Below, piece after piece: positions 9,800-31,349 of a DNA stretch of 43,142 nucleotides (position 1 is the first letter of the stretch; each line of letters starts with the position of its first letter). The DNA comes from Aeriscardovia sp. (GTDB lineage: Bacteria; Actinomycetota; Actinomycetes; Actinomycetales; Bifidobacteriaceae): the NCBI GenBank assembly GCA_017632535.1, contig JAGBRC010000015.1, positions 1-43,142 on the forward strand, given 5' to 3'. The position numbers were made by a program, and so were the translations under genes. The notes under the pieces are model-generated. The model was not told the origin of the DNA. It made no database searches and was given only the letters and a program-made list of their open reading frames with translations.

Positions 9800-10326
9800 T
9801 TTTCCTCCCCGGAGCCAATCCTTGAAATAGCCGAATCCGACATGCTCGTTTGTACGCCGGGATCTTTCAACTCGGATCCCAGGATTTTAGATGCCATGGA
9901 GACTGCCAGGCTTCCCACCTCGGCGCTGAGGTCGGAAAGGGCTTTGGCCTTTTGGGCCTCGAGGTCAGCTTTGGCCTCCTGTCGGATCTTTTCAGCCTCG
10001 GCCGCCGCCCTCTCTTGGGCTTCAGCCACGATTTGATCGGCCTGGGATCTGGCCTCCTGTCGGATCTTTTCAGCCTCCATCTTCGCCGATCCCAAAAGCT
10101 CGTCGTACTTTTCCTTGAGTTTTTGGGCGTCCTGCTTCATGGCCGTGGCGTCTTCTATCTGCCCTTTGATCTTTTTTGCGCGCTCGTTCATCACCTTGTT
10201 GAACTTGGGCATGACGAATTTGGCGAAGACTATGAGAAGCACTACGAGCACGACTGAAGACCAGATGAGATCGTAGACCTTGGGGAAAAATAGGTCAGAT
10301 CCTGAGCCCGCTGCTAACACAACCAT
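9796..10326 (-). CDS. atpF: F1F0 ATP synthase subunit b
   Basis: The 176-aa peripheral stalk subunit has one N-terminal membrane helix (LIWSSVVLVVLLIVFAKFVM) followed by a long charged coiled coil. The segment AEKIRQEA occurs twice, 26 residues apart, and the underlying 27 bases are identical, pointing to a recent internal duplication or repeat homogenisation. A short C-terminal domain (SMASKILGSELKD) contacts delta. It sits 18 bases downstream of atpE. Confidence 0.95.
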   Translation of the reverse strand: MVVLAAGSGSDLFFPKVYDLIWSSVVLVVLLIVFAKFVMPKFNKVMNERAKKIKGQIEDATAMKQDAQKLKEKYDELLGSAKMEAEKIRQEARSQADQIVAEAQERAAAEAEKIRQEAKADLEAQKAKALSDLSAEVGSLAVSMASKILGSELKDPGVQTSMSDSAISRIGSGEEK

Positions 10327-14179: not shown

Positions 14180-14222
14180 AAAAAAGCGGGCGCCTTCAGG
14201 CTGAACGCCGGAAAGCTCCCGC
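14180..14222 (-). terminator. Terminator hairpin in the leader of the second CoA-transferase gene
   Basis: Read on the minus strand, GCGGGAGCTTTC (14222-14211) pairs, with one mismatch and one G-U, with GAAGGCGCCCGC (14197-14186). Six U follow, ending at 14180, 26 bases before ATG 14153. The stem base GCGGG/CCCGC and U tract match the leaders of oxc and frc, but the loop differs. It could end the carrier transcript or attenuate the CoA-transferase gene. Confidence 0.75.
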
Positions 14223-14340: not shown

Positions 14341-14401
14341 TACCACTCAAAACTGTGGCACAAGCTTCTCCCGCGCTAGAGGGCGTGGGAGATGAGTGGT
14401 A
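14341..14401. repeat. Nested inverted repeats spanning the stop codon of the carrier gene
   Basis: Outer arms TACCACTCA (14341-14349) and TGAGTGGTA (14393-14401) pair perfectly. They enclose a near-perfect inner hairpin, CTCCCGCGC and GGCGTGGGAG, whose loop contains the TAG stop of the AEC carrier. No U tract follows, so it may stabilise the 3' end of upstream RNA rather than terminate. Confidence 0.5.
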
Positions 14402-15434
14402 TCAGCCAAATCCACAGCACGCATGTACCTGCGAAACAGACTGTGGAAATAGCCAGCGTACTTGTGCCTTCCTTGACGTAGATATTGTTTTGGCTGGAAA
14501 TTATAACGCCGCTCATTGCAGGAGGCAGTCCGGTTCCAAGGGCCAGCATCTCGAGGAGGATGAGGCTGTTGGGGTGCCTCCACATTCCGCACAAAAATCC
14601 TACGAAGATTAGGATTCCAGGCATGAGGAGCAAGCGGTAGAAAACGTTCCAGATAATTTCCCAGCTGAAGGCGAAAGTCCCCGTGGCGGCCAGGGCGACG
14701 CCTGCCGCGAGAACGGCGACGCCGGAATTAGCCTTGGCTATCAGCTCGAAGTTCGGGGTGAACCAAGAAGGCCACGGAATTCCGATAAGCACCCATATGA
14801 CGGCGAGGATAGGGGCCGCGGCCACGGGCTTGCAGCAAGCGCGGAGGATTGACCATCCGGCGCCACGGTGGATCTTCTTGCCCTTTTCATCGTATTCCTT
14901 GAGGGTGCCCGCCTTGGCGGCCTGCTCGTTGTAGTAGGATTCCACCAAGGACACGCCAATGGGAATAGTAATGGCATTTACTACTATGGATATAATGCCA
15001 ATCACCAGATTGGTATTGGTGGTGTCGCCGAAAATCGGGTCAAGCACTGCAAATCCCAGGAAGCCGATAGTGGGCGAACCTGCGATCAGTGCGCAAATGG
15101 CGGCTTCGGCCTTGTTGCGCTTGAACAGCCACTTGTCCAAGTAGTAGCAAAGCATGAAAAGAGCCGTGACGCCGATAAAGGAAATGAGGGTCAAGACTCC
15201 GTCTTGGATGAACAGCTTCCTGGAGGCTTTGGCAATGGAAGCAAACAAAGCCGCAGGGAGGGCCACGTCCAACACGAAGTAGTTCAAGGCTTGTCGGCCC
15301 GCGTTATCTATGAAGGGCCTTTTTTGGCCCTTCCATTTCCACCCCAGGCACCACCCCAGGGCCATGATGACCAGAATTGGGACCAGGTCATCTACAATGA
15401 TCTTTCCTATGTTCATTGGAAGTCCTATAGACAT
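14376..15434 (-). CDS. AEC (auxin efflux carrier) family permease, likely oxalate/formate carrier
   Basis: The product of about 352 aa has some ten hydrophobic segments. Near the N-terminus are DDLVPILVIMALGWCLGW and ALNYFVLDVALPAALFASI, typical of the Mem_trans/AEC fold. Next are GSPTIGFLGFAVLDPIFG and, after a central hydrophilic loop (DEKGKKIHRG), a second half with NSGVAVLAAGVALAATGTFAF. AEC proteins carry organic acids such as malate and malonate. Sitting between two CoA-transferase genes, downstream of frc and oxc, it is the obvious candidate for oxalate uptake or oxalate:formate exchange in place of an OxlT-type carrier (inference). The start is uncertain: ATG 15434 lacks a ribosome site, while ATG 15416 has AGGA upstream. 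A 13-bp hairpin lies immediately upstream. Confidence 0.85.
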   Translation of the reverse strand: MSIGLPMNIGKIIVDDLVPILVIMALGWCLGWKWKGQKRPFIDNAGRQALNYFVLDVALPAALFASIAKASRKLFIQDGVLTLISFIGVTALFMLCYYLDKWLFKRNKAEAAICALIAGSPTIGFLGFAVLDPIFGDTTNTNLVIGIISIVVNAITIPIGVSLVESYYNEQAAKAGTLKEYDEKGKKIHRGAGWSILRACCKPVAAAPILAVIWVLIGIPWPSWFTPNFELIAKANSGVAVLAAGVALAATGTFAFSWEIIWNVFYRLLLMPGILIFVGFLCGMWRHPNSLILLEMLALGTGLPPAMSGVIISSQNNIYVKEGTSTLAISTVCFAGTCVLWIWLIPLISHAL

Positions 15435-15489: not shown

Positions 15490-16812
15490 CTACTTAATCA
15501 CTTCCGGAGCAGCATTCTTCGGTCCGCGGGCCTCGGAAATTGTTCCATCGGCAACCATTCCCTGAATGTCGCTCTCGCTGAACCCGAGGCCGGAAAGAAT
15601 TTCCTTGTTGTTCTCGCCGAGATCGGGGGCGCGCTTGTAGGAAGGCTTGTAGTTAGACATGGTGAAGGGCAGGCCTATGGTCTTGAAGTCCCCGCGGTTG
15701 CCGCCCTCGTCGATGGTGACGATGGTGCCGTCGGAGTTCAGATCGGGGTCGTTTTCAAGCTCGTACCAGTCCATGATGGGCCCGCAGGGAAGCCCTGCCT
15801 TGCCGAACATCTCGGTGAGGGTGAACTTGTCGTAGTTCTTGGTGAAGTCCTCGATTTCGGCGTAGAGCTCCTCTTTGTGCAGCTGGCGGTGCTGCCAGGT
15901 GTCGAAGCGGGGGTCGTCGATGAGCTGGGGCTTGCCTATAGTGTTGCACAGAGCTTCCCAGCTGGACTTGGGATCCTGGATGACGATGTAAACGTAGTCG
16001 TTGGGATCGGTATCCCAGCCCTTGGCCTTGTAGCACCATCCGATGACCTGTCCGCCCTCGGTGTTTTCGGCCCTGGGGATGGCCTTGCCCCACTTGAAGT
16101 CGGTGTTGTAGACGGCGTAGTGGGGAAGGGCTCCGAGGTTGTCGAGCATGATCTGGTCGCGGAGCTTGATGCGGCAGAGGTTGATGGTGGCGTTGACCAT
16201 GGACTGGTACACGAAGCACCCTTCCCCGGTGCGATCCCTCTGGGCGAGGGCGGCGAGGATGCCTATGCAAAGGTGCATGCCGGAGTTGGAATCTCCGAGC
16301 GCGGCCGCGGACTGGGTGGGGACGTTGAACTTGCCCTCGTTCCAGCCGGTGGCGGAAGCCGCCCCGCCGGCGCTCTGGGCCACGGGCTCGTAAGCCTTTA
16401 CGTTTTCAAAGCGGGAGCCCTTGTTGAAGCCCTTGATGCTGCCCATTATGAGGCGCGGGTTGAGCTTGTGCACGTCTTCCCAGCCAAATCCTAGCTTGTC
16501 GACTCCGCCGGGCTTGATGTTTTCCACGAAGATGTCGGCCTTCTTGAGAAGCTCGGTCATGACCTTCTTGCCGGATTCGGTGCGGACGTCCAGGGTGAGG
16601 GACTTCTTGTTGGCGTTAAGCTGCAGGAAGTAAAGGCCCCAGGAGTCTGCGATGTCGAGGAGCTGATTGCGGGTGGGGTCTCCCGAACCGGGCTTTTCAA
16701 TCTTGATTACGTCTGCCCCGAGCCAAGCCAGGATCTGGGTGCAGGACGGGCCGGACTGGACCTGGGTCCAGTCGACTACTGTAATTCCCTTCAGCGGTGC
16801 AAATTCATTCAT
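15490..16812 (-). CDS. frc: Formyl-CoA:oxalate CoA-transferase
   Basis: I set the start at ATG 16812 (MNEFAPLKG), which has AAAGGTG upstream, rather than the GTG at 16833. The 440-aa class III CoA-transferase moves CoA from formyl-CoA to oxalate. It aligns closely, from memory, with Oxalobacter Frc: VVDWTQVQSGPSCTQ, FVENIKPGGVDKLGF, and ALGDSNSGMHLCIGILAAL. Asp174 in GDSNSG matches catalytic Asp169. PTRNQLLD has Gln where Oxalobacter Frc has Trp48, as I recall for E. coli YfdW. The glycine-rich active-site loop reads TEGGQ instead of GGGGQ. It follows oxc with its own promoter and leader terminator. Confidence 0.93.
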   Translation of the reverse strand: MNEFAPLKGITVVDWTQVQSGPSCTQILAWLGADVIKIEKPGSGDPTRNQLLDIADSWGLYFLQLNANKKSLTLDVRTESGKKVMTELLKKADIFVENIKPGGVDKLGFGWEDVHKLNPRLIMGSIKGFNKGSRFENVKAYEPVAQSAGGAASATGWNEGKFNVPTQSAAALGDSNSGMHLCIGILAALAQRDRTGEGCFVYQSMVNATINLCRIKLRDQIMLDNLGALPHYAVYNTDFKWGKAIPRAENTEGGQVIGWCYKAKGWDTDPNDYVYIVIQDPKSSWEALCNTIGKPQLIDDPRFDTWQHRQLHKEELYAEIEDFTKNYDKFTLTEMFGKAGLPCGPIMDWYELENDPDLNSDGTIVTIDEGGNRGDFKTIGLPFTMSNYKPSYKRAPDLGENNKEILSGLGFSESDIQGMVADGTISEARGPKNAAPEVIK

Positions 16813-16844: not shown

Positions 16845-16906
16845 ATTAAAAAAGCGGGCGCTTCTCCTCACGCACTCGCGTTGGGAAAAGCGCCCGCAAT
16901 GATTAA
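16845..16906 (-). promoter_or_regulatory. 62-bp attenuator-like leader module of frc
   Basis: On the minus strand, GCGGGCGCTT (16897-16888) pairs perfectly with AAGCGCCCGC (16863-16854) around an inner ACGC/GCGT hairpin, and is followed by six U (16853-16848). The U tract ends 35 bases before ATG 16812. A GATTA-N6-TAATC hairpin (16916-16901) immediately precedes it. The 62 bases recur with a single change upstream of oxc at 18691-18752. Confidence 0.85.
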
Positions 16907-16923
16907 TGCTCTAATCGCCTCCT

Positions 16924-16952
16924 ATTATGTAACAAGAAAAGTTACTTTTCAA
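16924..16952 (-). promoter_or_regulatory. Promoter of frc
   Basis: On the minus strand a TTGAAA -35 (16952-16947) and CATAAT -10 (16929-16924) are separated by exactly 17 bases. Each hexamer is one base from consensus. The -35 overlaps the end of oxc. GTAAC/GTTAC arms lie in the spacer and could be an operator. Expected start about 16917, so the whole small hairpin plus terminator is transcribed. Confidence 0.65.
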
Positions 16953-18663
16953 TAGGAAGATTCACTGGCCCGTCCTCGTGGAAGATGACGGGATTGAGGT
17001 GGCCTATGTGTCCGCTCTCCTTGCCCATGTTGGGATCCAGCACGGCATTGATGACGGTGGGCTCTTTGGAAGCGTAAGCCTCTTTGAGGGCATCCTCCAT
17101 CTCCTGATAGGTGCGCACGCAATACGCCCTGCCCCCGAAGGCGCGGGCTATAAGGTCGTATTGACCGCTGGGATCCAGGTAAGTCGGGGAGACCATGCCG
17201 TCAATTTCGGAATCTTTGCCGTTATAAATTCCTCCATTGTTGCAAACCACAACTATTACCGGCAGATGGTAGCGGCAGATGGTCTCAGTCTCCATTCCGT
17301 CAAATCCGAAGGCGGAATCGCCGGCCAGGTCGATTACGGGGCGCCCAGTCTCCACGGCGGTAGCTATGGCGTAGGGCAGTCCCACTCCCATAACCCCCCA
17401 GGTTCCGGTGTCGAGGCGGTGGCGGGGCTGGAAGATATTGATTACGTCCCTGCCGGTGTCGAGGGTGTTGGCCCCCTCAGACACCAGGTAAGTGTCGGGG
17501 TTTTCGGCTATAAGGTCGCGGATGGGGAGCATGGCACCGTAGAAGCCCATGGGCTCCCTGCTCTTGCCGGCCTCTTCGGCCTTGCTCATCTTCTCCACAT
17601 TGGAGGCCTTCTTTTCAGCGATCTTGTCCAGCCAGTCCTGGGGGGCCTTGTAACCCGTCGCCTTGACGGCGGGGACGAACTTGCTGAGGACGGAAACCAT
17701 GTCTCCTACGAGCGGAGCCGCAATGTGGCGGTTGGAATCTATCTCCTGCCCGTCGATGTCGACTTGTATGAACTTCACGTCAGAAGAGAAGGGCTTGGGG
17801 GAGGCGCCGTTGCTCAAAAGCCAGTTGAGCCTGCAGCCCAAAAGCAGGATCACATCCGACGTCCCCAGGGAGAGGGACCTTGCGGCGGCGGCGCTGTTCT
17901 TGTCTCCGTCGGGAATAATTCCCTTAGCCATGCTCATGGGGAGGAAGGGGATGGAAGTGGAAGAGACTAGGTCCCTTATCTGATCTTCGGCCTTGGCGTA
18001 AGCTGCGCCCTTTCCGAGAAGGATGGCGGGGCGCTTTGCGGAAGTGAGGATGTCTACAGCCCTTTTCACCGCTTCATCGCTCGGGAACTGGGCCGGGGCA
18101 GGATCGACCGGCACGTGGATGGTTGAAGCGGGATCGATTGAGGGATCGAGCATCTGGCCGAGCATCTCTCCGGGGACGTCGAGGTACACTCCTCCCGGGC
18201 GACCGCCTATAGCGGCCCTGATCGCCCTTATAACTCCTAGGCCCACGTCCTCGGGCTTGTCAATGCGGAAGGCAGCTTTGCAGAAAGGCTTGGCGGCATT
18301 GTACTGGTCCATCCCCTCGTATTCGCCCCTGTCCATATCGACGAGGGCGCGATCGGAAGATCCCGAAATCATAATCACAGGCCAGCAGTTCTCGGTAGCT
18401 TCCTTGAGGGCCACTAGGCCGTTCAAAAATCCGGGGGCGGAAACGGTCATCGCGATTCCGGGGCGGCCGGTGAGGTATCCGGCGGCGGCGGCGGCTTCTA
18501 CCGCGGCGTCCTCCCTGCGGAAGGCATAGAAGTGTATCCCTTCCATCTCCATCAGGCGGGCGACGTCAGTTACCGGGATGCCCACGAGGCCGTAGACATT
18601 TTTTACCCCGTTGGCTTTGAGGGCTTCGACCAAGAGATCTGCGCCGTTCATTTTTACAGTCAT
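16942..18663 (-). CDS. oxc: Oxalyl-CoA decarboxylase (thiamine diphosphate-dependent)
   Basis: The start is ATG 18663 (MTVKMNGADLLVEAL), with AAGGAG seven bases upstream; the frame extends upstream to 18717 but runs through the leader hairpin. The 573-aa product converts oxalyl-CoA to formyl-CoA and CO2. The N-terminal Pyr domain has GIPVTDVARLM and the ThDP-activating Glu in FRREDAAVEAAAAAGYLTG. The C-terminal PP domain has the metal/ThDP motif GDSAFGFDGMETETI...CNNGGIYNG, strongly resembling Oxalobacter Oxc. A central domain binds nucleotide in this family (ADP activation). Product formyl-CoA is consumed by Frc downstream. It has its own promoter and attenuator-like leader. Confidence 0.95.
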   Translation of the reverse strand: MTVKMNGADLLVEALKANGVKNVYGLVGIPVTDVARLMEMEGIHFYAFRREDAAVEAAAAAGYLTGRPGIAMTVSAPGFLNGLVALKEATENCWPVIMISGSSDRALVDMDRGEYEGMDQYNAAKPFCKAAFRIDKPEDVGLGVIRAIRAAIGGRPGGVYLDVPGEMLGQMLDPSIDPASTIHVPVDPAPAQFPSDEAVKRAVDILTSAKRPAILLGKGAAYAKAEDQIRDLVSSTSIPFLPMSMAKGIIPDGDKNSAAAARSLSLGTSDVILLLGCRLNWLLSNGASPKPFSSDVKFIQVDIDGQEIDSNRHIAAPLVGDMVSVLSKFVPAVKATGYKAPQDWLDKIAEKKASNVEKMSKAEEAGKSREPMGFYGAMLPIRDLIAENPDTYLVSEGANTLDTGRDVINIFQPRHRLDTGTWGVMGVGLPYAIATAVETGRPVIDLAGDSAFGFDGMETETICRYHLPVIVVVCNNGGIYNGKDSEIDGMVSPTYLDPSGQYDLIARAFGGRAYCVRTYQEMEDALKEAYASKEPTVINAVLDPNMGKESGHIGHLNPVIFHEDGPVNLPIEK

Positions 18664-18690
18664 AATCGCTCCTTGCATCACAAAAAGCCA

Positions 18691-18752
18691 ATTAAAAAAG
18701 CGGGCGCCTCTCCTCACGCACTCGCGTTGGGAAAAGCGCCCGCAATGATTAA
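18691..18752 (-). promoter_or_regulatory. 62-bp attenuator-like leader module of oxc
   Basis: It is identical to the frc module at 16845-16906 except at 18708 (C for T). In the RNA this turns a stem A-U pair into G-U, so the terminator stem GCGGGCGCTT/AGGCGCCCGC still forms. Six U (18699-18694) end 30 bases before ATG 18663. A perfect GATTAA-GTTT-TTAATC hairpin (18762-18747) precedes the terminator. Confidence 0.88.
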
Positions 18753-18771
18753 AAACTTAATCTTGCCCCCA

Positions 18772-18800
18772 ATTATAGAAGGCTGTCTGGAGTTTGCAAA
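18772..18800 (-). promoter_or_regulatory. Promoter of oxc
   Basis: On the minus strand a perfect TATAAT -10 (18777-18772) lies 17 bases from TTTGCA (18800-18795) as -35. Expected start about 18765, in a G run. It begins right after the hsp20 stop, so oxc can be transcribed independently of hsp20, with the leader hairpins inside the transcript. Confidence 0.65.
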
Positions 18801-19223
18801 TTAGTCAGCAATCTCTATAAATTCTTCGCCCTTAGGGGTCTCAATCTCCTTGGGGATGGTGAGGGTGAGGATGCCGTCAGAAAGGCGGGCCTTGATGTCG
18901 GTGGAGAGCAACTCCTTGCCTACGTAGAAGGTGCGAGAGCACGCCTCCACGGAGCGTTCGCGGCGAAGGTACTGCTTGCCGGCCTTGTCTGCCTCTTCCT
19001 TCTCGCCCTTCTTGGCGGACACTATCAGGTATCCGTCCTTGAGCTGGAGGTGGATCTCCTTCTTGGTGAAGCCCGGCAGCTCTATTTCGAGCTTGTAGTC
19101 GGAGGGGGTTTCGGAGATGTCGGTGCGCATCAGGGACGCCATGGATCCGCTCTGTGCGCGGCCGAGGATCGCGCCCCAAGGGGTGTCGGACAAATCATTT
19201 ATTACATCAGGCAGAAACGCCAT
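18801..19223 (-). CDS. Small heat-shock protein, Hsp20 (alpha-crystallin) family
   Basis: The 140-aa ATP-independent holdase chaperone carries the alpha-crystallin core from about residue 32: MRTDISETPSDYKLEIELPG, FTKKEIHLQLKDGYLIVSAK, the RRERS strand, and the terminal ARLSDGILTLTIPK (A-x-x-x-n-G-v-L motif), ending EFIEIAD. The ATG has AAAGGAAAAAGACT upstream. Neither a CIRCE nor an obvious HAIR-type element was found upstream, but the intergenic region to ppa contains imperfect inverted repeats. It is directly upstream of oxc. Confidence 0.93.
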   Translation of the reverse strand: MAFLPDVINDLSDTPWGAILGRAQSGSMASLMRTDISETPSDYKLEIELPGFTKKEIHLQLKDGYLIVSAKKGEKEEADKAGKQYLRRERSVEACSRTFYVGKELLSTDIKARLSDGILTLTIPKEIETPKGEEFIEIAD

Positions 19224-28731: not shown

Positions 28732-29826
28732 TCAGGATTTGAGCATGGAAGAGAGAAAAGAGCGCAAGGGCATGGGGATGGAAGGGGAAAGCGGCCCCGC
28801 ACGCCGGATTTCCCGGCAGATCTGGTAGGGGGAAGCGGCCTTTATCCCGCCTGGCCACTGCACCCCGGAGGCGACTTTGGGCTGGGAGGCGGCGGAGGTA
28901 GAGGCTATGCACACCCTCCATGCGTCCAAAACCTCCCACCTTCCCTTAGAAATCCGGGAAAGCTCCCCCTCCCACTCCTTTTTCTGCCTGCCCATGTTCC
29001 CTCCCATTTTTAGGGCCGGAGATCCGCCCTGACCTCCCAAAAAGGCCCTCCTTTTTGAATCCAGGCGCACGAGGAACTCCGGGGAAATCTGGTCGTAGAC
29101 TACCCCTTCTCCCCCCCTGTAGTTTTTTGCGTCCACCATCCACAGCCTCACCCTGCCCTGCCCGTCCACCCCTGCCAGGACAAGGTCAATGTCGGAGGGG
29201 ATCTTTTTCCCTCCCTTGAGGCCGTAGAGGCTGGCAAAGACCAGCACATCCGGACATGAGAGGGCGAAGAACTTAGCTAAAAGCTTTTCGCCCTTCGCTC
29301 CCGCCATGGAGAGGGACGCAGAAAAAGGGGCCGAGGACAGCCCTGCTCCCGGCTCCCCCACTATTCTTCCCTCCCGGGCGAGCTGCCAGTAGGGGTAGGA
29401 GGCGGCAAAAGCAAAATTGGGATCCTCCTCCCCCCGGCAGGCCTCCTTTTCTTCTAGGAAGCCGAAAAAGCTAGGGGAAGAAAAGGACCTCGAAATCTTG
29501 TACTTTTCGGCCACCCTCTTGGCATCCTTTTTTGAAAGCTCCCCGGCCGAGATCCCTTTCTTTTTTTGCCCCGCCAGGGCGATGGAGGCCCTGCGCCCCA
29601 AAAAGAGAAGGCAGAGGAGGGAAAAGAGCATGGAGAAATTGGCAAGAAGGGACGGGGAGGGGAAGGCCCCGAGGCCTTTGAAAAGCGAAAGGGCTAGGAG
29701 GGGCAAGAGGAGGGGCGGGGAGGAAAAGAGGATTCTGCGGGAAGGCTTTCCGCAAGACTTTAGAAAGCGGAGCGCCCCCTCGCCCGCCCCGGCCAAAAAG
29801 GTCAGGGCGAAAGCCAAAAGGGTCAT
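28732..29826 (-). CDS. Membrane-anchored NERD-domain protein (nuclease-related)
   Basis: The 364-aa product has two or three N-terminal hydrophobic segments (MTLLAFALTFLAGAGEG; ILFSSPPLLLPLLALSL; LLANFSMLFSLLCLLFLG). A cytoplasmic NERD domain follows at about residues 175-300: GAKGEKLLAKFFALS, SDIDLVLAGVDGQGRVRLWMVDAKNYRGG, with the D-(E/D)xK-like Asp...VDAKNYRG core of PD-(D/E)xK-fold nucleases. Family members are linked to DNA processing but mostly uncharacterised. Its ATG overlaps the stop of the sensor kinase by four bases, so the two are made together. Confidence 0.78.
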   Translation of the reverse strand: MTLLAFALTFLAGAGEGALRFLKSCGKPSRRILFSSPPLLLPLLALSLFKGLGAFPSPSLLANFSMLFSLLCLLFLGRRASIALAGQKKKGISAGELSKKDAKRVAEKYKISRSFSSPSFFGFLEEKEACRGEEDPNFAFAASYPYWQLAREGRIVGEPGAGLSSAPFSASLSMAGAKGEKLLAKFFALSCPDVLVFASLYGLKGGKKIPSDIDLVLAGVDGQGRVRLWMVDAKNYRGGEGVVYDQISPEFLVRLDSKRRAFLGGQGGSPALKMGGNMGRQKKEWEGELSRISKGRWEVLDAWRVCIASTSAASQPKVASGVQWPGGIKAASPYQICREIRRAGPLSPSIPMPLRSFLSSMLKS

Positions 29827-31286
29827 GCCCCTTCAGGGGCCCCATTCAGGTTTATTGAAAGTTCGACTTTTGTGCCGCCTGCGGGGGCTGAAGACCATAG
29901 GATGGAGCCCTGGAAATCGACTTTCACGAAAGTCTCCACTATCTTCATCCCAAGGCTCGCGCCCGAAGGGGGCATCTTGCCCAGCCCGACTCCGTCGTCC
30001 AGGATTGTCACAGAGAGCCCGCGCCCCTTCCTTTTGGCGCGAATGCAGATCTCCCCTTCTCTTTCTCCCGCAAAGCCGTGCTCCACCGCGTTGGCGACGA
30101 GCTCGGAAAGGATGAGGGCCAAAGGCGTGGCGTCCTGAGGGGCCAGGAGCCCAAATGACCCCTCATAGGAGATGGAGATCTTCTGATCCCCTTCCCGCAT
30201 GATGTCTACGTTGGTTTGAAGGAGCTTGGTCAGGGCGCAGTCAAAGTCGATTAGCTCGTCTTTGCTCTGGGAAAGGGCATCGTGGAGGATGGAAATAGCC
30301 TGCACCCTCCTTTTGGCAGTCTGCAGGGCCTTTTTCACCTCTTCATTTTCCGAATCTCTGATTTGAAGGGCCAGAAGGGAAGCCACGGACTGGAGGTTGT
30401 TTTTAATGCGGTGGTTGATTTCGGAGATAGTGGCGTCTTTTATCTTCAGCTCGTTGTCCCGGCGGCGGATTTCAGTTATCTCCCTGCACAGCACCACCGC
30501 TCCGCAGTAGTCCCTCTCGTTCCACAGGGGAAGGGAGCGCAACGTGGCTGAGACGTTGTTTATACTCAGGACCGCATCCAAGGGCCTCTCGCCTGAAAGC
30601 AGAGTCCTCATTCCTTCGCTCAGCTCTTCTGGGGCCGCAAGGCCTTCGACGAGCTCGGAGAGGTTCTGCCCCGTCAAAGGGCCCCGGGAGCCCAGGCGTT
30701 TAAAGCAGCTTATGGCATTGGGGGAGGCGTCGGTCACCAGGGAGACCGAGTTTAAAGTCACAAATCCGTCAGGGACATGGGCGTTATGCCTCTGGGTATT
30801 GACGGGGACCCTGTAGGGAAATTGCCCCAAAGGAATCATGGAAAATAGCTTCCAGGACGAATCTATCCCCGTCTGCTCCCACTTGCCCGTGTGGGCGGAG
30901 GGGTAAGCCATGCGGAGGACCACTCCCGCCTTTTCCCCTTGCCAGCTGGCGCTGACGGCGCTTATGGACTTAAATTCCGGATTTGAAGGGCAAAGGGGGC
31001 GCTCGGAAGAAAGGGCGCAAGAGAGGAATGGGGAGAGGGCCGCGGGAAACTTTTGCCCCACCATGTCTTCGGGGCGGCAGGAAGGGGCGGTGGCCGGGCG
31101 CACTTGGGCCGCGCAGATGAATCCCCCGCTGCCATCTTTTACGGCGAGCTGCAGATCGCAGTACCCCAGATCCGCTATTATCCCCCAGTCGGCTATAAGG
31201 GAGTGGAGCAGGTGCCGGGCGCCGTCGGTGAGGTTTGAACAGGCCAGGATCCTGTCGGGATCTTTCAAATTGCCGCACTCGTTCAT
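29823..31286 (-). CDS. PdtaS-like cytosolic sensor histidine kinase (HisKA_2 type)
   Basis: The start is ATG 31286 (MNECGNL), rather than the longer TTG frame. The 487-aa product has no membrane helix. It has an N-terminal GAF-like sensor (to about 150) and a PAS-like domain (VTDASPNAISCFKRLG, VVLCREITEIRRR). A HisKA_2 dimerisation box follows, with the phospho-His in ATISEINHRIKNNLQSVAS, then a HATPase with LSELVANAVEHGF, LDDGVGLG and GASLGMKIVETF. This layout is that of actinobacterial PdtaS, whose partner PdtaR is an ANTAR-domain, RNA-binding antiterminator. No response regulator gene is present next to it. Confidence 0.88.
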   Translation of the reverse strand: MNECGNLKDPDRILACSNLTDGARHLLHSLIADWGIIADLGYCDLQLAVKDGSGGFICAAQVRPATAPSCRPEDMVGQKFPAALSPFLSCALSSERPLCPSNPEFKSISAVSASWQGEKAGVVLRMAYPSAHTGKWEQTGIDSSWKLFSMIPLGQFPYRVPVNTQRHNAHVPDGFVTLNSVSLVTDASPNAISCFKRLGSRGPLTGQNLSELVEGLAAPEELSEGMRTLLSGERPLDAVLSINNVSATLRSLPLWNERDYCGAVVLCREITEIRRRDNELKIKDATISEINHRIKNNLQSVASLLALQIRDSENEEVKKALQTAKRRVQAISILHDALSQSKDELIDFDCALTKLLQTNVDIMREGDQKISISYEGSFGLLAPQDATPLALILSELVANAVEHGFAGEREGEICIRAKRKGRGLSVTILDDGVGLGKMPPSGASLGMKIVETFVKVDFQGSILWSSAPAGGTKVELSINLNGAPEGA

Positions 31287-31349
31287 TTTTCCAATCCTAA
31301 AGTAAAGCAAGTAAATTTAATTGTAGTAAGACATGCGAAAGGAGCTGCA

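What the first reader, a model, noticed from the sequence alone, without database searches (positions are those of the whole stretch)
16845..18800. Duplicated promoter-plus-terminator leader modules controlling oxc and frc
Seen: oxc and frc each have a sigma70-like promoter (TTTGCA-17-TATAAT; TTGAAA-17-CATAAT). A 62-base module follows, identical in both except one base, and that change (A-U to G-U) keeps the stem paired. The module is a full intrinsic terminator (10-bp GC stem plus U6). It ends only 30-35 bases before the start codon, so it lies inside the transcript of the gene it precedes. Duplication with pairing preserved in two leaders suggests selected attenuation/antitermination, perhaps sensing oxalate, oxalyl-CoA or formyl-CoA. 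I know of no described element of this kind for oxalate genes. A plain alternative is that the hairpins are just the terminators of hsp20 and oxc.
Basis: partly seen in the sequence, partly recalled or inferred. Interest (0 to 1): 0.8.

Follow-up and report, generated by a model that had tools for sequence, protein, structure and literature searches.

The report
Paired terminator leaders before oxalate genes
In a genus of tiny-genome Bifidobacteriaceae from ruminant guts, the two main oxalate-degrading genes each start with the same promoter-then-terminator RNA leader, whose hairpin loop has not changed in seven species, so it is probably a selected on/off control, although what it senses is unknown.

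Summary
All seven genomes of the genus (0.6-0.9 Mb, Bifidobacteriaceae; named relatives are 'Aeriscardovia sp.' ruminant MAGs) carry exactly two copies, always before oxc and frc. No strong copy sits elsewhere in these genomes, in 114 further family genomes, or in Rfam. The apical 18 nt (CCAACGCGAGTGCGTGAG) are identical in all 14 copies, while fourfold-degenerate sites of neighbouring genes are only 23% invariant. They are the two most stable tandem terminators in the relative scanned (G004), and among the most loop-conserved. The oxc promoter upstream of the hairpin is invariant; frc's is looser. So these are probably not just hsp20/oxc terminators. Best reading: a duplicated leader attenuator, with a trans-acting factor reading the apical loop. 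The signal, the factor and actual termination are not shown. Against: proximity alone is common (15 of 26 tandem terminator-like hairpins in G004 lie within 50 nt of the next start), and compensatory change is nearly absent. ANTAR, BglG/RAT and leader-peptide attenuation were tested and not met.

The parts
18772..18800 (-). oxc promoter: TTGCAA-16-TATAAT (or TTTGCA-17), directly after the hsp20 stop
   Evidence: TTGCAA-16-TATAAT identical in 7/7 species with a variable spacer
18747..18762 (-). oxc leader P1: weak 5' hairpin GATTAA-GTTT-TTAATC
   Evidence: predicted fold
18700..18743 (-). oxc leader terminator hairpin (14-bp stem plus 4-bp apical stem)
   Evidence: dG about -35 kcal/mol
18713..18730 (-). 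invariant apical segment CCAACGCGAGTGCGTGAG (oxc copy)
   Evidence: identical in 14/14 copies; fourfold sites 23% invariant
18694..18699 (-). U6 tract, oxc copy
18668..18688 (-). hairpin GCTTTTTG...CAAGGAGC that pairs the oxc Shine-Dalgarno; kept in 7/7 species
   Evidence: predicted
16942..18663 (-). oxc, oxalyl-CoA decarboxylase
   Evidence: TIGR03254 above cut-off
16924..16952 (-). frc promoter TTGAAA-17-CATAAT, overlapping the oxc 3' end
   Evidence: a -10-like hexamer in 7/7, a -35-like hexamer in 5/7
16901..16916 (-). frc leader P1: GATTA-GAGCAT-TAATC
   Evidence: predicted
16854..16897 (-). frc leader terminator hairpin
16867..16884 (-). invariant apical segment, frc copy
16848..16853 (-). 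U6 tract, frc copy
15490..16812 (-). frc, formyl-CoA transferase
   Evidence: TIGR03253 above cut-off
14186..14222 (-). third, related terminator hairpin before the second CoA-transferase; variable loop
12933..14153 (-). second CoA-transferase (CoA:oxalate CoA-transferase / YfdE-like; best profile hit below curated cut-off)
14376..15434 (-). YfdV-like auxin-efflux-family transporter
   Evidence: below curated cut-off
18801..19223 (-). hsp20, upstream gene in all seven species

Best explanation
A duplicated, genus-specific leader attenuator. Each promoter starts a leader with a short AU-rich hairpin and a very strong intrinsic terminator that begins about 20 nt after the predicted start site. 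By default RNA polymerase is released after about 75 nt (inferred). A trans-acting factor, most likely an RNA-binding protein, reads the invariant loop and 5' arm and lets polymerase pass, so oxc and frc are co-induced (inferred). Shown: architecture; sequence constraint on promoter (oxc strongly), loop, stem pairing and U-tract; restriction to oxc and frc. Not shown: termination, relief of termination, signal, factor. In oxc a second hairpin over the Shine-Dalgarno may add translational control (predicted only).
For: Two copies in each of 7 genomes, always before oxc and frc; no other strong match in those genomes or in 114 other family genomes. The exact 18-mer across one genome for each of 84,980 species gave otherwise only two unrelated hits. 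Apical 18 nt invariant in 14/14 copies while fourfold sites differ by 0.31-0.48 between all species pairs but one and are 23% invariant. Among 67 intergenic terminator-like hairpins comparable between G004 and G005, the two rank 4th and 5th for apical identity; of the three above, one looks like a tRNA end and two were not identified. Strongest tandem terminators in G004, and oxc is the only one with a 10/12 promoter between upstream stop and hairpin. oxc and frc promoters each exceed all 2000 shuffles. The U-tract is kept although its sequence varies.
Against: No transcript data. Upstream genes (hsp20, oxc) run the same way in every species, so a terminator for them is also served. Terminators within 50 nt of the next start are common here. 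Covariation is nearly nil. No mutually exclusive antiterminator fold is predicted; the hairpin is in every full-leader fold. No factor is identified. The fourfold-site comparison may overstate constraint, because many intergenic regions in this genus are 85-90% identical.
Confidence: 0.55

Rival explanations
1. Plain intergenic terminators of hsp20 and oxc, kept alike by gene conversion; oxc and frc are expressed by constant partial read-through.
For: Both hairpins follow a same-strand gene in all species; 15 of 26 tandem terminator-like hairpins in G004 lie within 50 nt of the next start. The sister-genus genome G016 has nearly the same stem with another loop after oxc. The 5' arm is identical between the two copies of each genome in 7/7, which fits gene conversion.
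Against: Ordinary terminators here do not keep their loops (median apical identity about 0.72). A conserved promoter lies between hsp20 and the hairpin, so its own transcript meets it. In sister-genus genomes G016 and G062 an hsp20 terminator-like hairpin lies ahead of the oxc leader instead.
Confidence: 0.2
2. Two sibling small RNAs: the promoter and terminator make a stand-alone transcript of about 75 nt that acts in trans, and the genes downstream use read-through.
For: Promoter plus short transcript plus terminator is the anatomy of an sRNA gene; loop invariant.
Against: Always and only placed before oxc and frc; conservation continues into the Shine-Dalgarno hairpin of oxc; no other promoter seen for oxc downstream of the hairpin.
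Confidence: 0.08
3. A DNA operator: the loop half-sites ACGC-GAGT-GCGT and TTAATCATT are bound by a repressor just downstream of the promoter.
For: Imperfect palindrome at a near-constant distance from the -10; the oxc -10 is itself flanked by an inverted repeat.
Against: Does not explain the 14-bp stem with pairing kept in varying positions, nor the U-tract on the sense strand only; no regulator gene was recognised next to the cluster.
Confidence: 0.08
4. A 5'-UTR stabiliser or processing hairpin that raises mRNA life for highly expressed enzymes, with little termination.
For: Very stable hairpin near the predicted 5' end; frc fourfold sites are more constrained than those of the neighbours, compatible with high expression.
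Against: A kept U-tract is not needed for that role.
Confidence: 0.09

Closest known systems
eut locus of Enterococcus faecalis (EutV ANTAR antitermination; PMC3369931)
   Same: Intrinsic terminators placed before several genes of one catabolic locus; in eut, deletion of the terminators gives high unregulated expression.
   Different: eut leaders carry dual hairpins with A1/G4 hexaloops that compete with the terminator; here none is found in the required position and the conserved loop is inside the terminator.
BglG/LicT RAT antitermination
   Same: Leader terminator before catabolic genes, protein-relieved.
   Different: No RNA-binding domain of this family (PF03123) found in the genome; no separate RAT-like hairpin overlapping the terminator in the fold.
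PyrR or HutP type leaders (from memory)
   Same: A protein recognises a conserved sequence in the loop or body of a leader hairpin.
   Different: Rfam negative. A resemblance of principle only, not tested further.
L. acidophilus oxalate-inducible frc-oxc operon (cited in PMC8773937)
   Same: oxc and frc induced together, by oxalate under acid conditions.
   Different: Its control region was not examined here; no such leader is mentioned in the passages read.

Membership tests
Intrinsic terminator | GC-rich stem followed at once by a U-rich tract | tested here: met
   stem of about 14 bp, at least 5 T in the first 8 nt in all 14 copies
Leader attenuator | Terminator lies between the promoter and start codon of the gene | tested here: met
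   for sequence; transcription start not measured
Leader attenuator | Read-through changes with a signal | not testable with these tools
   needs RNA or reporter data
ANTAR target RNA | Two hairpins with hexaloops having A1 and G4, the second overlapping the terminator | tested here: not met
   no A1+G4 hexaloop before or in the hairpin in any of 14 leaders; definition from PMC8164766 and PMC3369931
ANTAR target RNA | ANTAR protein in the genome | tested here: met
   one PF03861 gene; PdtaS-like kinase in the window
BglG/LicT antitermination | CAT_RBD protein present | tested here: not met
   own genome is 95% complete
Leader-peptide attenuation | Short translated ORF before the terminator | tested here: not met
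   no ATG before or within the hairpin; 1-nt length changes in the 5' arm break any frame
Known Rfam riboswitch or leader | Covariance match above gathering score | tested here: not met
   only tRNAs

The most novel reading that the evidence does not exclude
A new class of antitermination in which the terminator's own invariant apical loop is the recognition site for an unknown factor that reports oxalate (or its CoA esters) and co-induces oxc and frc in a reduced gut actinobacterium.
Probability: 0.3. Interest if true: 0.7.

Novelty: new variant of a known kind. Interest (0 to 1): 0.55.

Why it matters
I found no RNA-level control described for oxalate breakdown genes (a limited search of an open-access library). 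A genome of under 1 Mb that keeps two near-identical leaders for this pathway suggests oxalate is central to its energy budget. If confirmed it gives a compact regulatory part and a way to find its protein partner by co-conservation.

Tried and rejected
Homology of the loop to a conserved hairpin in the sister-genus oxc leader: not supported (shuffle p 0.02, 0.56, 0.82, and the best alignments mostly fall outside that hairpin). A long-range helix around the frc terminator (GAAAGTTAATC with GATTGGCTTTC): strong in four of seven frc leaders and weak or absent in the others and in oxc, so not claimed. Compensatory covariation as proof: not supported. The 18-mer hits in Bifidobacterium choloepi (beyond a thioredoxin-reductase-like gene) and Demequina (apparently inside a coding stretch) look like chance. 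Viral contigs: no match. Other oxc-bearing genera of the family: no module. Literature searches combining oxalate, riboswitch and formyl-CoA, or oxalyl-CoA with leader and terminator, found no paper.

Full report
WHAT IS THERE. The window is contig C34 of a 0.62-Mb, 95%-complete assembly. The related named records are 'Aeriscardovia sp.' MAGs from yak, goat and water buffalo fore-stomachs, so the family is Bifidobacteriaceae. On the - strand lie hsp20, oxc, frc, a YfdV-like transporter, a second CoA-transferase and, after a gap, atpB. Each is a 14-bp stem with a 4-bp apical stem and a U6 tract, far more stable than shuffles (-36 to -39 kcal/mol against about -20). oxc starts at 18663 and frc at 16812, so the U-tracts end 30 and 35 nt upstream.

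IS IT MORE THAN A TERMINATOR? In all seven genomes of the genus the gene order is the same, so the upstream genes (hsp20, oxc) always run the same way and synteny cannot separate the two readings. Sequence constraint can. The apical segment CCAACGCGAGTGCGTGAG and the preceding TTAATCATTGCGGGCGC are identical in all 14 copies. Fourfold-degenerate sites in oxc, frc, yfdV and hsp20 are invariant in only 23% of cases across these species; if columns were independent, 18 invariant columns would have a chance near 2e-12 per locus. That figure is a guide only, because intergenic regions in this genus are often well conserved. The direct control is better: of 67 intergenic terminator-like hairpins that can be compared between G004 and G005, median apical identity is about 0.72, and the oxc and frc hairpins score 0.94, the one difference being a C-run length. 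Of the three that rank above, one looks like a tRNA end; the other two, at G004 contig C3 86891-86945 and 85973-86022, I could not identify (Rfam finds nothing on that stretch at gathering score). The two are also the most stable tandem terminators in G004.

PROMOTERS. TTGCAA-16-TATAAT is present in 7/7 species before the oxc hairpin with a variable spacer, ending 18-20 nt before the module. For frc the -10 is kept loosely and the -35 in five of seven, ending 16-18 nt before the module. Both sets exceed all 2000 shuffles. In G004 oxc is the only tandem case with a 10/12 promoter between the upstream stop and the hairpin, and none is seen between hairpin and start for oxc. In two sister-genus genomes (G016, G062) a hairpin with a T-run lies right after the hsp20 stop, ahead of the oxc leader, the usual order.

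RESTRICTION. A covariance model built from 13 of the 14 copies, run over 121 family genomes, finds the two strong copies per genome (83-102 bits) and otherwise only their reverse complements, the weaker hairpin before the second CoA-transferase (24-29 bits where found), and hits below 30 bits. The exact 18-mer in one genome each of 84,980 species returns the genus plus two unrelated places.

LIMITS. In G004 15 of 26 tandem terminator-like hairpins lie within 50 nt of the next start, so position alone means little. Pairing is kept in 98% of cells, but no pair shows a two-sided change in the count, so covariation does not prove RNA function. Within each genome the 5' arms of both copies are identical (7/7) while the 3' arms match in only 2/7; this fits gene conversion or recognition of the 5' half of the hairpin, and the two cannot be told apart here. 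Folding shows no competing antiterminator for the hairpin, so relief would need a bound factor or modified polymerase.

MECHANISM, COMMITTED. A leader attenuator read by a trans-acting factor at the invariant loop, co-controlling oxc and frc (0.55). Shown: anatomy, constraint, restriction. Inferred: termination, relief, signal. ANTAR antitermination, the nearest known design through the eut locus (PMC3369931), was tested: an ANTAR gene is in the genome and a PdtaS-like kinase in the window, but the leaders lack the dual A1/G4 hexaloops (definition PMC8164766), so it is not filed there. BglG-type and leader-peptide control were also not met.

VERDICT. The finding is real and selected; its regulatory reading is likely but unproven. 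Interest 0.55, new variant of a known kind.

Noticed in passing
L041, L042, L043 (about 80 nt before oxc): In the sister genus a different hairpin, TGTCCRCTGGGCGGAATGGCGTAGRGGA, is nearly invariant in three species before oxc and found nowhere else in 121 family genomes.
   Followed up: partly
window 18765-18783: The oxc -10 box is flanked by an inverted repeat (GCCYCC-TATAAT-N-GGRGGC in relatives, weaker in this genome), a possible operator.
   Followed up: no
window 14222-14186 and 15468-15439: Hairpins also precede the second CoA-transferase (with U-tract) and the transporter (U-rich tail in only some species); loops variable.
   Followed up: partly
window 29823-31310: PdtaS-like histidine kinase gene; the only ANTAR gene found in the genome is on another contig (C27).
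   Followed up: no
G004 contig C3:86776-86951 (in L127): A 175-nt stretch outside recognised conserved genes is 97% identical to G005; unidentified, no Rfam match at gathering score.
   Followed up: partly
window 9972-9999 and 10050-10077: Exact 28-nt direct repeat with 78-nt spacing inside an ORF of the ATP synthase region.
   Followed up: no
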